NCBI RefSeq assembly: GCF_000252955.1
Contig: NC_014228.1
Span: 2,060,005-2,124,004, forward strand
DNA from: Xenorhabdus nematophila ATCC 19061
GTDB taxonomy: Bacteria; Pseudomonadota; Gammaproteobacteria; Enterobacterales; Enterobacteriaceae
Direction of reading: 5' to 3'
DNA: 64,000 nt
Shown one piece after another: positions 2,076-23,705 of this stretch; position 1 is the stretch's first letter; each line of letters opens with the position of its first letter. The notes below the pieces were generated by a model that was not told where the DNA came from, made no database searches, and saw only the letters and a list, made by a program, of their open reading frames with translations. The translations under genes and the position numbers were made by a program.

Positions 2076-3254
2076 ATGTTTTTAAGTAAAGAATCTTTCA
2101 GTCATGAGGAGTGGAGTGATCCTAAATTTCAGTTACGTAATTTAATTAAAACGTCTGAAGATTTAGAGAAATGGATTGCGTTAACGGATAACGAAAAAAA
2201 AGCCATTGAAGCTGTCAAAGGAAAATATTTATGGCAGAGTACGCCTTATTATGCATCTTTGATGGATAAGTATGATGCTAATTGCCCTATTCGATTGCAA
2301 ACTATTCCTCATTTAAGGGAAATGAAAATTGAGACAAACTCTGATAATGATCCGGTAGGAGATACATCAAATCTTAAAACAGCCAGAGTAATCCATAAAT
2401 ATCCAAACAGAATTGTTTTACTGGTTTCTGATACTTGCCCTGTTTATTGCCGACATTGTACACGCAAGTTTCATACAACAGATGTTGAAGGTACTTATTT
2501 TGGTTCGGATCTTGCTGCATCATATGAAGAAGATTTTGCTTATATTGAGAGTCACCCTGAAATAGATGATGTACTCCTGACAGGAGGCGACCCTTTAATT
2601 CATTATGATAAATTTCTTGAAGTCATTATTAAGCGTTTGAGAAGCATAAAACACATTAATATCATTCGCATTGGAAGCCGTTATCCTGTATTTGCTCCCC
2701 AGAGAATAACGGAAAAATTTTGTCAAATGTTGGAAAAATACCATCCTATCTGGGTGAATACCCATTTCAATCACCCTAAAGAAGTCACAGAAGAAGCCGC
2801 TACGGCTTGTGATCGGTTGCTACGGCATGGTATCCCGGTGCAGAATCAGTCTGTTTTGCTGAAAGGCATCAATGATGATGTAGAAACAATGCGTTCACTG
2901 CTTAAGGCGTTATTGAGGATCAGGGTTCGCCCTTATTATTTATATCATTGCGATAATGTATCGGGTGTTTCCCATTTCATGACCACACTGGAAAAGGGAA
3001 AGGAAATTATGGATGCGATGGTAGGGTTTGAAACGGGTTTTAGTGTGCCGCAATATGTTGTGACAACGACATTAGGTAAATTGGCTGTTAACCGGGAATA
3101 TGTTATTACACAGGAAGATGGGCGTATAATTGGGAGGAATTATAAAAAAGAAAGTTTAGATGTTACTGAATATATAAAACCCCCTTTCGAATTTAATAAC
3201 ATAAGTGATAAACACAATGGAAATAAAATAATCCCCTCTAAAAATATCGAATAG
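2076..3254 (+). CDS. Radical SAM 2,3-aminomutase (KamA-like), altered substrate pocket
   Basis: This is a PLP- and [4Fe-4S]-dependent radical SAM enzyme of the lysine 2,3-aminomutase family, which moves an alpha-amino group to the beta position of an amino acid. The cluster motif is CX3CX2C (CPVYCRHC; Cys121, 125, 128), followed by DDVLLTGGDPL. Asp293 in the YHCDN segment matches one of the two aspartates that hold the lysine side-chain amine in clostridial LAM. The second aspartate is Thr330 here, and the glycine-rich loop carrying the PLP lysine is shortened to TTTLGK (Lys335 probably binds PLP). The substrate is therefore probably not ordinary lysine; glutamate and arginine mutases are known relatives. 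ATG 2076 was chosen for its GAGGA site 7 nt upstream. It is the first gene of the cluster, 33 nt before an aminotransferase. Confidence 0.88.
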   Translation: MFLSKESFSHEEWSDPKFQLRNLIKTSEDLEKWIALTDNEKKAIEAVKGKYLWQSTPYYASLMDKYDANCPIRLQTIPHLREMKIETNSDNDPVGDTSNLKTARVIHKYPNRIVLLVSDTCPVYCRHCTRKFHTTDVEGTYFGSDLAASYEEDFAYIESHPEIDDVLLTGGDPLIHYDKFLEVIIKRLRSIKHINIIRIGSRYPVFAPQRITEKFCQMLEKYHPIWVNTHFNHPKEVTEEAATACDRLLRHGIPVQNQSVLLKGINDDVETMRSLLKALLRIRVRPYYLYHCDNVSGVSHFMTTLEKGKEIMDAMVGFETGFSVPQYVVTTTLGKLAVNREYVITQEDGRIIGRNYKKESLDVTEYIKPPFEFNNISDKHNGNKIIPSKNIE

Positions 3255-3287
3255 TATTTAAATTTTGACAATCAGAGATTACTTATA

Positions 3288-4457
3288 ATGATAAAAGAAA
3301 ATGATTTATTATCCCGTATTACGGGTAGGTCAAAAAATATTAATACCTCGGTTACGGTAGGATTGGCTGATATTGTCACTAAATTAAAAAATGATGGGCA
3401 TGACATCATTGGTCTAAATGAAGGTGAGCTGAATTTCAGTACGGATACCTATATTATCAATAAAACCATTCAAGCATTATCTGAAGGAAAAACCCGTTAT
3501 AGTTGGCTGAATGGAGAACCTCAGTTAAAAGAGCAAATTTGCCGGAAGGTATTAGAAAACAATAAAATTAATGCAACACCTGAAAATATTATTGTAACTA
3601 ACGGATCGAAACAAATTATTTATGAAATATTCCAGACATTAATTGAACCGGGTGATGAAGTCATTATCCCTGTTCCTTGTTGGGCCACATATTTAGAAGG
3701 TGTAAAATTAGCTGGCGGAAAAGCCATCTTAATTGAAAATATTGGTGTGGATCTGAATGTAGAAAAAATTAAACAGGCAATAACTGACAAAACAAAACTC
3801 ATTATTATCAATACCCCAAACAATCCAACCGGAGCTGTTTACTCAAAATCCGCGTTGCAGAGTCTGTGCCAATGTGTCAAAGAGAAGCAGATTTTCGTGT
3901 TATCTGATGAAGCTTATGAACAAATTGTATTTGATGTTGAACATCATAGCCTAGCCGCAATTGACGATAACGAATTCATCATAACAGTACAAACGTTTTC
4001 CAAAAGCTTTGCCATGACGGGATACCGTATAGGCTATGCGATTGCTCATCCTGAATTAATTAGTCGATTATCTGATTTGCATGGTCACATGACTGATAAT
4101 GTTTGTACATTTGCTCAGTATGGTGCCATTGCAGCACTTGAAATGCCCGCAGATTTGTATCAGGAACAATTGGAAATACTGAAACAACGACGGGATTTAT
4201 CATACCAGTATGCCCGAGAGCTTTTTGAATGCGAGCGACCCGATGGTGCATTTTATCTGTTCCCGAACGTCGAAAAATATCTCAATGAGCGTTGTCAAAA
4301 CACCACTCAATTATGTGAATACCTGCTCACGCAGGCAGGGGTTGCCCTGATCCCTGCCGAAGCCTGTCTTTATCATGGACATATACGTATTTCTTTTGCT
4401 GTTTCGATGGAAGCGATTGAACGGGGATTTGAAAGGATCGTTGCCGTATTGCGATAA
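3288..4457 (+). CDS. Class I/II PLP-dependent aminotransferase
   Basis: A 389-aa fold-type I aminotransferase of the AspC-like subgroup. Visible are NTPNNPTGAVYS, LSDEAYE, the PLP lysine in TFSKSFAMTGYRIGYA (Lys239) and the C-terminal carboxylate-binding Arg in HIRISFAVS. The family exchanges an amino group between an amino acid and a 2-oxo acid. Between a 2,3-aminomutase and an amino-acid oxygenase it most likely makes or recycles an unusual building block for the assembly line. The substrate cannot be read from sequence. It starts 33 nt after the preceding stop with only a weak ribosome site. Confidence 0.88.
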   Translation: MIKENDLLSRITGRSKNINTSVTVGLADIVTKLKNDGHDIIGLNEGELNFSTDTYIINKTIQALSEGKTRYSWLNGEPQLKEQICRKVLENNKINATPENIIVTNGSKQIIYEIFQTLIEPGDEVIIPVPCWATYLEGVKLAGGKAILIENIGVDLNVEKIKQAITDKTKLIIINTPNNPTGAVYSKSALQSLCQCVKEKQIFVLSDEAYEQIVFDVEHHSLAAIDDNEFIITVQTFSKSFAMTGYRIGYAIAHPELISRLSDLHGHMTDNVCTFAQYGAIAALEMPADLYQEQLEILKQRRDLSYQYARELFECERPDGAFYLFPNVEKYLNERCQNTTQLCEYLLTQAGVALIPAEACLYHGHIRISFAVSMEAIERGFERIVAVLR

Positions 4458-22896: not shown

Positions 22897-22961
22897 GATA
22901 ATGCGCACCATAATAACGCGGTACATATCGATACGCGATTTTAGGAATACAGGAGTGGAAT

Positions 22962-23705
22962 TTGGAAAATAATAACTTGTTGATTATACAAAAGCGGGTC
23001 AGCAATCCGAGGCTGAGGCTCTTTTGCTTTCCATATGCGGGTGGATCGGCGAAAACTTATTATGATTGGGCTACATACTTTCATGATGATATTGAAGTTG
23101 TTGCTGTACAGCCGCCAGGGAGGACAACCCGCATTGATGAACCCCTGCATGAAAATCTGCATTCTTTGGTCAACGAGTTAATGAGCTATGTCACATTTAT
23201 TACACAAATACCCTATGTTTTTATTGGCCACAGTTTGGGATGCCGGGTAGCATTTGAACTGGCCCGTCAACTGCAATCCCACGCTCATCCCGTTCCTGCC
23301 CACTTCTTTGCGTCAGGGTGTCCGGCACCACATTTGAAAAATAATATCCCTCATACTCATCAATTAGCGCGTAATGAATTTATCCGTGAGTTACAGAAAA
23401 TGAATGGTGCTACTGATGAAGTACTGCTGAATAGTGAACTTATGGAAATTTTGTTGCCTGTGTTGAGGGCGGATTTCAAAATGGCTGAAACCTATCAGTT
23501 AGAACGGTTTATGCTGGAAAGCCCGATAACCGTTTTAAGCGGAGATTCTGATCCGGATGTTAAGCCGATTGAACTTTATGCTTGGTCAGAATTAACCAAT
23601 AAGGACTTAACGGTGCATACTATTTCGGGAGATCATTTTTTTATTGATCAAAATAAAGAAGCAGTGATAGAGGTTGTCTCATCTGTGCTTGAGTGCATAG
23701 GCTGA
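22962..23705 (+). CDS. Type II thioesterase of the PKS/NRPS cluster
   Basis: A 247-aa alpha/beta hydrolase of the stand-alone thioesterase family (GrsT-like). The nucleophile elbow is GHSLG (Ser91) and the catalytic His lies in GDHFF near the C-terminus; the N-terminal FPYAGGSAKTYYDW is typical. Such enzymes clear misprimed carrier domains. Because no thioesterase domain is fused to the last module, this one may also release the product, which is an inference. The start is a TTG at 22962 with AGGAG at 22951-22955, 6 nt away. The 65-nt gap is the widest in the second half of the cluster. Confidence 0.92.
   Translation: MENNNLLIIQKRVSNPRLRLFCFPYAGGSAKTYYDWATYFHDDIEVVAVQPPGRTTRIDEPLHENLHSLVNELMSYVTFITQIPYVFIGHSLGCRVAFELARQLQSHAHPVPAHFFASGCPAPHLKNNIPHTHQLARNEFIRELQKMNGATDEVLLNSELMEILLPVLRADFKMAETYQLERFMLESPITVLSGDSDPDVKPIELYAWSELTNKDLTVHTISGDHFFIDQNKEAVIEVVSSVLECIG

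What the first reader, a model, noticed from the sequence alone, without database searches (positions are those of the whole stretch)
2076..23705. Uncatalogued hybrid PKS/NRPS cluster with iturin-like beta-amination and six tailoring genes
The line AL-ACP-KS-AT / ACP-aminotransferase-C-A-T / C-A-T / TEII predicts a short product: acyl starter, one C2 unit carrying a beta-amine, a probably basic amino acid, and Asn or hydroxy-Asn. What makes it unusual is the company: a radical SAM aminomutase, an aminotransferase, an amino-acid hydroxylase, a ketopantoate-reductase-like enzyme and a Rieske oxygenase in one coupled operon. I recognise no named pathway with this set. It is inserted between ruvB and znuB, which adjoin in E. 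coli.
Basis: partly seen in the sequence, partly recalled or inferred. Interest (0 to 1): 0.9.

Follow-up and report, generated by a model that had tools for sequence, protein, structure and literature searches.

The report
Orphan arginine-linked peptide-polyketide gene cluster
A ten-gene assembly line in an insect-killing Xenorhabdus bacterium, shared by about a third of the genus genomes examined and in one strain carried on a plasmid, probably builds a short molecule around a chemically altered arginine; its product was not found in the open papers searched.

Summary
The cluster is real and intact (window 2076-23705). It is not uncatalogued: by gene order and kind it is XNC1_2153-2162 of X. 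nematophila, tabulated as an Lrp-dependent cluster of unknown product (PMC5313471). I found no assigned product in the open library. New here: the radical SAM enzyme scores as arginine 2,3-aminomutase; the hydroxylase is nearer arginine hydroxylases than Asn hydroxylases; with a class I aminotransferase they form a three-gene cassette, also found beside a KS and an ACP-AMT on an Azospirillum plasmid. The Rieske enzyme has Glu at the bridging position, as in the amine-oxidising enzyme CntA. The cluster is in 11 of 30 Xenorhabdus genomes and on one megaplasmid, at several sites, with one recent transfer and one deletion scar. All ten genes are under purifying selection; catalytic motifs are conserved in 12 of 12 copies. 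Predicted product: beta-amino-acyl, arginine-derived residue, Asn. Starter, arginine-derived residue and final structure are inferred. Verdict: new variant of a known kind, moderate interest.

The parts
2076..3254 (+). Radical SAM arginine 2,3-aminomutase (blsG-like)
   Evidence: TIGR04468 663 bits, cut-off 600; CxxxCxxC in 12 of 12; KAM Asp330 position is Thr
3288..4457 (+). Class I/II PLP aminotransferase (aspartate-aminotransferase type)
   Evidence: PF00155; best PDB match 1j32; no conserved Ser-Ser pair as in GntC/VioD/OrfR
4483..5445 (+). Fe(II)/2-oxoglutarate oxygenase related to arginine hydroxylases (VioC/OrfP/GntD-like)
   Evidence: GntD 262 bits, VioC 218 bits, both below cut-off; PDB arginine hydroxylases
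5489..10423 (+). PKS subunit AL-ACP-KS-AT; malonyl-type AT motif (motif meaning recalled)
   Evidence: Pfam; KS Cys/His, AT GHSLGE and RAFHS conserved in 12 of 12
10425..16109 (+). PKS/NRPS subunit ACP-AMT-C-A-T; A-domain code DIEDIVAITK (read by hand)
   Evidence: Pfam; AMT Lys motif in 12 of 12, code positions in 12 of 12 except one Leu at 299
16106..17356 (+). MFS exporter
   Evidence: PF07690
17358..18362 (+). Ketopantoate-reductase-like NAD(P)H oxidoreductase
   Evidence: PF02558/PF08546; Lys and Glu motifs conserved in 12 of 12 (roles recalled)
18362..19591 (+). Rieske oxygenase alpha subunit with Glu at the bridging position
   Evidence: PF00355/PF00848; ENFIEYYH in 12 of 12
19588..22896 (+). 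NRPS subunit C-A-T; Asn-like code DATKVGEVGK (read by hand)
   Evidence: Pfam; code positions conserved in 12 of 12
22962..23705 (+). Stand-alone (type II-like) thioesterase, proposed release or editing enzyme
   Evidence: PF00975; GHSLG and GDH/GGH motifs in 12 of 12

Best explanation
An intact biosynthetic operon that makes a short hybrid peptide-polyketide. The AL domain adenylates an acyl starter and loads the first ACP. KS-AT adds one malonyl unit onto the second ACP. The AMT domain converts the beta-keto group to a beta-amine, as in iturin. Module 1 condenses this with a guanidino amino acid, and module 2 adds Asn. The stand-alone thioesterase releases the product and the MFS pump exports it. 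The guanidino amino acid is made from L-Arg by the cassette aminomutase + 2-oxoglutarate oxygenase + aminotransferase. The ketopantoate-reductase-like and Rieske enzymes tailor the product, the Rieske perhaps oxidising at or next to an amine. Shown by sequence: gene and domain order, family relations, catalytic residues, conservation. Inferred: starter identity, order of the cassette steps, the exact arginine-derived residue, release mode, final structure.
For: Domains. Arginine aminomutase above curated cut-off. Arginine hydroxylases as best PDB relatives of the oxygenase. Acidic specificity pocket and Asn-like code, conserved in 12 of 12 apart from one Leu at position 299 of module 1. The cassette is adjacent on an Azospirillum plasmid, in a cluster with ACP-AMT (38% identical), KS (36%) and a short thioesterase-like ORF. 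Purifying selection. Lrp-dependent transcript ratios falling along the gene order from 29.52 at the aminomutase to 2.47 at the thioesterase with one small rise (passages of PMC5313471).
Against: No metabolite is known to me. The module 1 A domain has a non-canonical A3 motif (TSGSTQxxN for TSGSTGxPKG) and AQTE for GPTE in 12 of 12 copies, so its activity is unproven, though the conservation argues for function. AL has one PDB match at E 1e-20 or better, an oxalyl-CoA synthetase, so a fatty-acid starter is not shown. Neither Azospirillum A domain has such an acidic pocket (my reading of sequences), so the cassette's product may not enter both lines in the same way. The oxygenase misses the curated cut-offs of the arginine families. 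No terminal TE domain and no Rieske reductase among the ten genes.
Confidence: 0.6

Rival explanations
1. Same line, but the starter is not a fatty acid: AL loads an aryl acid or a small arginine-derived acid, giving a small polar product rather than a lipopeptide.
For: AL has only one PDB match at E 1e-20 or better; the Azospirillum cluster has a stand-alone amino-acid adenylation domain and ACP, and no AL was seen there; a polar product would easily be missed (inference).
Against: NCBIfam's best AL match is a long-chain fatty-acid ligase subfamily, 165 bits, far below its cut-off of 476; AL-ACP-KS-AT followed by ACP-AMT is the order of iturin-type lipopeptide synthases (recalled).
Confidence: 0.3
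2. The aminotransferase-like enzyme is an arginine cyclase and the cassette makes a capreomycidine- or enduracididine-type ring.
For: Similarity to GntC (278 bits) and of the oxygenase to GntD (262 bits).
Against: Both below curated cut-offs (415, 345); the enzyme scores higher as an aspartate aminotransferase, 359 bits, itself below the cut-off of 550; the Ser-Ser pair shared by GntC, VioD and OrfR (PMC10367076 passages) is absent from the first 52 residues in 6 of 12 orthologues and lies at residues 8-9, far from GEL, in the other 6.
Confidence: 0.15
3. The cluster already has a product published under another name in literature not held here.
For: The library holds open-licence papers only, and the supplements of PMC9177418 could not be read; three of the eight searches listed only part of their hits (40 of 131, 40 of 62, 30 of 160).
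Confidence: 0.1
4. A decaying, non-functional insertion.
For: One relative, G021, keeps only a frame-broken thioesterase remnant at the same site.
Against: Frames open and motifs conserved in 12 of 12 copies, dN/dS 0.05-0.15, regulated expression in X. nematophila.
Confidence: 0.03

Closest known systems
Iturin/mycosubtilin synthases (first subunit AL-ACP-KS-AT-ACP-AMT-C-A-T; recalled, not compared by a call)
   Same: Same domain order and beta-amination logic; an Asn module
   Different: Here split over two proteins, only two amino-acid modules, no terminal TE, arginine cassette, KPR-like and Rieske genes; AL specificity untested
Puwainaphycin synthetase (PMC4219810, outline and abstract seen)
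   Same: Acyl ligase, hybrid PKS/NRPS, beta-amino fatty acid lipopeptide, an Asn/Gln adenylation domain
   Different: Larger peptide and no arginine cassette, both as I recall
Blasticidin S arginine 2,3-aminomutase BlsG
   Same: Same equivalog family TIGR04468; a Kitasatospora plasmid with blsE, blsF and blsG encodes a 57% identical enzyme
   Different: There beta-arginine goes to a nucleoside antibiotic (recalled); here the gene sits in a PKS/NRPS operon with a hydroxylase and an aminotransferase
Arginine hydroxylases VioC, OrfP, CmnC, GntD
   Same: Facial triad, carboxylate-binding Arg and one guanidine-binding Asp kept
   Different: Second guanidine-binding Asp (VioC D270) is Leu; below family cut-offs; own subfamily with 47-67% identical relatives, most without an organism name
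Azospirillum argentinense plasmid p5 cluster (L042)
   Same: Adjacent hydroxylase (50%), aminomutase (64%), aminotransferase (43%); ACP-AMT (38%), KS (36%), C-A-T
   Different: No AL, AT, KPR or Rieske annotated or found in the nine proteins scanned; has stand-alone A, ACP, AurF-like oxygenase, methyltransferase; its product was not searched for

Membership tests
Iturin-type beta-amino-fatty-acid lipopeptide synthase | AL-ACP-KS-AT-ACP-AMT-C-A-T order (recalled) | tested here: met
   split over two proteins
Iturin-type beta-amino-fatty-acid lipopeptide synthase | AL activates fatty acids | not testable with these tools
   Only weak long-chain-ligase scores; one PDB match at E 1e-20
Iturin-type beta-amino-fatty-acid lipopeptide synthase | Seven amino-acid modules and cyclising TE (recalled) | tested here: not met
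   Two modules, separate thioesterase
Arginine 2,3-aminomutase (TIGR04468) | Score above curated cut-off | tested here: met
   663 vs 600 bits
Arginine 2,3-aminomutase (TIGR04468) | Loss of lysine-binding Asp330 of lysine 2,3-aminomutase (role recalled) | tested here: met
   Thr at that place
VioC/OrfP/GntD arginine hydroxylase | HxE...H triad and substrate carboxylate Arg (VioC R334) | tested here: met
VioC/OrfP/GntD arginine hydroxylase | Curated cut-off of TIGR03946 or NF041363 | tested here: not met
   218 vs 418.6 and 262 vs 345 bits
PLP arginine cyclase (GntC, VioD, OrfR) | Conserved N-terminal Ser-Ser pair; GntC family cut-off | tested here: not met
Group V (quaternary-ammonium type) Rieske oxygenase | Bridging Glu and an aromatic residue two before it (CntA E205, Y/F203) | tested here: inconclusive
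   ENFIEYYH in 12 of 12 fits PMC7948474 passages, but I placed it against CntA by eye, and of 8 distant relatives aligned 6 have Glu and 2, the nearest (P0137) included, have Asp
Group V (quaternary-ammonium type) Rieske oxygenase | Family-level score | tested here: not met
   GbcA 76 vs 670 bits; best PDB matches are ring dioxygenases, 7.5e-15, with carnitine monooxygenase close behind, 4.6e-14; nearest non-Xenorhabdus relative 28%

The most novel reading that the evidence does not exclude
The cassette works as a relay on one molecule. The aminomutase moves the arginine amine from C2 to C3, the 2-oxoglutarate oxygenase oxidises C2, and the aminotransferase re-aminates C2, giving a new building block (2,3-diamino- or 2-hydroxy-3-amino-arginine). 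A beta-aminating assembly line then uses it, and the Rieske enzyme oxidises at an amine. This would be a pathway type shared by Xenorhabdus and Azospirillum with no characterised member that I could find.
Probability: 0.25. Interest if true: 0.7.

Novelty: new variant of a known kind. Interest (0 to 1): 0.52.

Why it matters
It is an expressed, Lrp-dependent and conserved cluster in a model insect symbiont whose product I could not find assigned. It links arginine 2,3-aminomutase, known to me from blasticidin-type pathways, to a PKS/NRPS line, and predicts an unusual guanidino amino acid. The Azospirillum relative gives a second system in which to test the same three enzymes.

Tried and rejected
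Asn hydroxylase for the oxygenase: disfavoured, since arginine hydroxylases match better than the asparagine oxygenase in PDB (E 1.5e-44 to 6.6e-38 against 4e-27); against this, automatic names of some relatives read L-asparagine oxygenase (P0018, for example) or clavaminate synthase. Lysine or glutamate aminomutase: rejected by scores 389 and 376 against 663 bits. Aromatic ring dioxygenase for the Rieske: disfavoured by the bridging Glu, not excluded. RNA elements in 1-27000: none at gathering scores. tRNA genes: none in the window. Rhabdobranin and benzobactin of PMC9177418 (sections 13 and 14 read): described with other genes. More examples of the cassette: 1 of 398 phylum genomes at E 1e-45 for the hydroxylase and 1 of 369 class genomes for TIGR04468 at E 1e-130, both the window's own genome, with 0 of 14 control genomes. 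The A-domain codes were read by hand against motif positions of GrsA that I recalled; no program assigned them.
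Full report
What it is. The ten ORFs at 2076-23705 match in order and kind, not by a sequence comparison, the ten genes XNC1_2153-2162 of Table 2 in PMC5313471: arginine aminomutase, aminotransferase, putative clavaminate synthase, PKS, PKS/NRPS hybrid, membrane protein, dehydropantoate reductase, dioxygenase, NRPS, thioesterase (fragment). There they stand under product 'Unknown' together with a hypothetical gene XNC1_2152, with wild-type to lrp-mutant ratios from 29.52 (aminomutase) down to 2.47 (thioesterase); I read passages only. 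The same passages say that these clusters were identified by RNA-seq as positively regulated by FliZ. So the genes are catalogued and only the product is missing. The ratios fall along the gene order with one small rise, as expected for one transcript.

Product in print. Eight paper searches named no product in what I saw of them (some searches listed 40 of 131, 40 of 62 and 30 of 160 papers). In PMC9177418 I read the outline, passages and sections 13 and 14; the two unusual clusters described there, rhabdobranin and benzobactin, have other genes. A genome that I take for X. griffiniae carries the cluster (G029; its 4,767,870-base contig equals that of P0129). The products listed for X. griffiniae ID10 in the passages seen of PMC11566119 include none that fits; whether strain ID10 itself carries the cluster was not checked. 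The library holds open-licence papers only, so a closed-access report cannot be excluded.

Assembly line. Pfam gives AL (AMP-binding), ACP, KS, AT in 5489-10423; ACP, class III aminotransferase, C, A, T in 10425-16109; C, A, T in 19588-22896; a thioesterase at 22962-23705. Active-site motifs hold in 12 of 12 copies (the window, ten genomes, one plasmid): KS Cys and both His motifs, AT GHSLGE with RAFHS (malonyl type, recalled), AMT TYGKVIGGG, C domains HHxxxDG and HHxxxDN, carrier serines, thioesterase GHSLG. Codes read by hand: module 1 D-I-E-D-I(one Leu)-V-A-I-T-K, acidic at 239 and 278, fitting a guanidino side chain; module 2 D-A-T-K-V-G-E-V-G-K, eight of ten the same as the Asn code DLTKLGEVGK (recalled). 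Module 1 departs from the usual A3 and A5 motifs in all 12 copies. The unnamed relative P0175, 63% identical in this domain, has the same Pfam domains and, by my reading, the same pocket with Leu at 299.

Arginine cassette. The radical SAM enzyme passes the arginine 2,3-aminomutase cut-off (663 vs 600 bits), with lysine and glutamate aminomutases far behind; lysine-binding Asp330 of 2a5h aligns to Thr (role recalled). The oxygenase matches VioC, OrfP and CmnC in PDB (OrfP by recall of the entry). It keeps the triad, the carboxylate Arg and one guanidine Asp, but has Leu at VioC D270 in 12 of 12 (residue roles from passages of PMC10884159, which also says that NapI has only one of the two Asp residues). 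The aminotransferase lacks a conserved Ser pair as in arginine cyclases. On Azospirillum argentinense plasmid p5 the three genes are adjacent (50%, 64% and 43% identical), followed by a short thioesterase-like ORF and in one run with KS, C-A-T, stand-alone A, ACP, ACP-AMT and an AurF-like oxygenase. The other close relatives of the oxygenase are mostly unnamed proteins. In 369 class genomes only the window's own genome has TIGR04468 at E 1e-130.

Tailoring. The Rieske alpha subunit has Glu at the bridging position and Phe two before it in 12 of 12. PMC7948474 (passages) describes a bridging Glu and such an aromatic residue for CntA and relates the aromatic residue to the quaternary-ammonium group V. 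Against a firm placing: family scores are low, the best PDB matches are ring dioxygenases with carnitine monooxygenase close behind, the nearest relative outside Xenorhabdus is 28% identical, and of eight distant relatives aligned two, the nearest included, have Asp. Substrate class is therefore a lead only. The ketopantoate-reductase-like enzyme keeps its Lys and Glu motifs and could reduce a 2-keto acid or an imine (inference). No ferredoxin or reductase for the Rieske is among the ten genes.

Distribution and mobility. 11 of 30 Xenorhabdus genomes, own included, have the hydroxylase at E 1e-60. The other ten carry all ten genes in one order. A twelfth copy lies on the X. bovienii CS03 megaplasmid NZ_FO818638.1. 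Both flanks ruvB and znuB were seen in 6 of the 11 genome copies, and in a seventh (X. khoisanae) only znuB, because the contig ends. In the other four (innexi, stockiae, hominickii, bovienii T228) no ruvB or znuB was found in the stretches held around the cluster; with the plasmid copy they form one group in the unrooted tree with support 1.00. T228's whole contig of 23,068 bases is 99.9% identical to the plasmid. The hominickii and bovienii T228 clusters are 96.3% identical in DNA over 22,196 bases, while their znuB-ruvB regions are 83.4% identical over 3,496: recent horizontal transfer. In X. innexi against X. stockiae the order is reversed (84.5% over the 21,343-base main piece, 91.5% for the znuB region), which does not suggest recent transfer. 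G021 has at ruvB-znuB only a thioesterase remnant in two frames, a deletion scar. Of 30 znuB loci, 14 have ruvB within 66-286 bases, 4 at about 891-1239, 8 have the thioesterase or its remnant, and 4 show no ruvB in the stretch held.

Function is maintained. dN/dS against X. koppenhoeferi is 0.07-0.15 and against X. thuongxuanensis 0.05-0.14 for the ten genes; ruvB 0.02. Only these two of the eleven other copies were compared in this way.

Judgement. The line works like an iturin-type starter module joined to two amino-acid modules, but it fails two recalled defining features of iturin synthases (seven modules, terminal TE), so I do not file it as a member. The distinctive part is the arginine cassette feeding such a line.

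Noticed in passing
window 1568-2075, and ruvB-znuB intervals in L050-L082: The ruvB-znuB interval looks like a variable insertion site in Xenorhabdus: 4 of 30 genomes carry about 0.9-1.2 kb there, and in G016 and G028 no ruvB lies within about 4.6 kb of znuB although no gene of this cluster was found there.
   Followed up: partly
L080 9733-10403 (G021): Frame-broken thioesterase remnant between ruvB and znuB marks loss of the rest of the cluster in one species.
   Followed up: yes
window 46423-62138: Three large minus-strand ORFs of 1530, 2471 and 1030 aa; size and place suggest the toxin-complex genes XNC1_2186-2188 that PMC5709968 lists. Not analysed.
   Followed up: no
L043 8024-36512 (X. 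bovienii CS03 megaplasmid): The cluster on the plasmid has an IS6-family transposase on one side and, a few kb away on the other, IS1-family transposase and recombinase genes.
   Followed up: no
L042 4181-19849 (Azospirillum argentinense p5): PKS/NRPS cluster with the same arginine cassette, an AurF-like oxygenase and a leucine-carboxyl-methyltransferase-like gene; its product was not searched for.
   Followed up: partly
L044 11495-18538 (Kitasatospora sp. NBC_00039 plasmid): Blasticidin-like gene set (blsE, blsF, blsG) on a linear plasmid.
   Followed up: no
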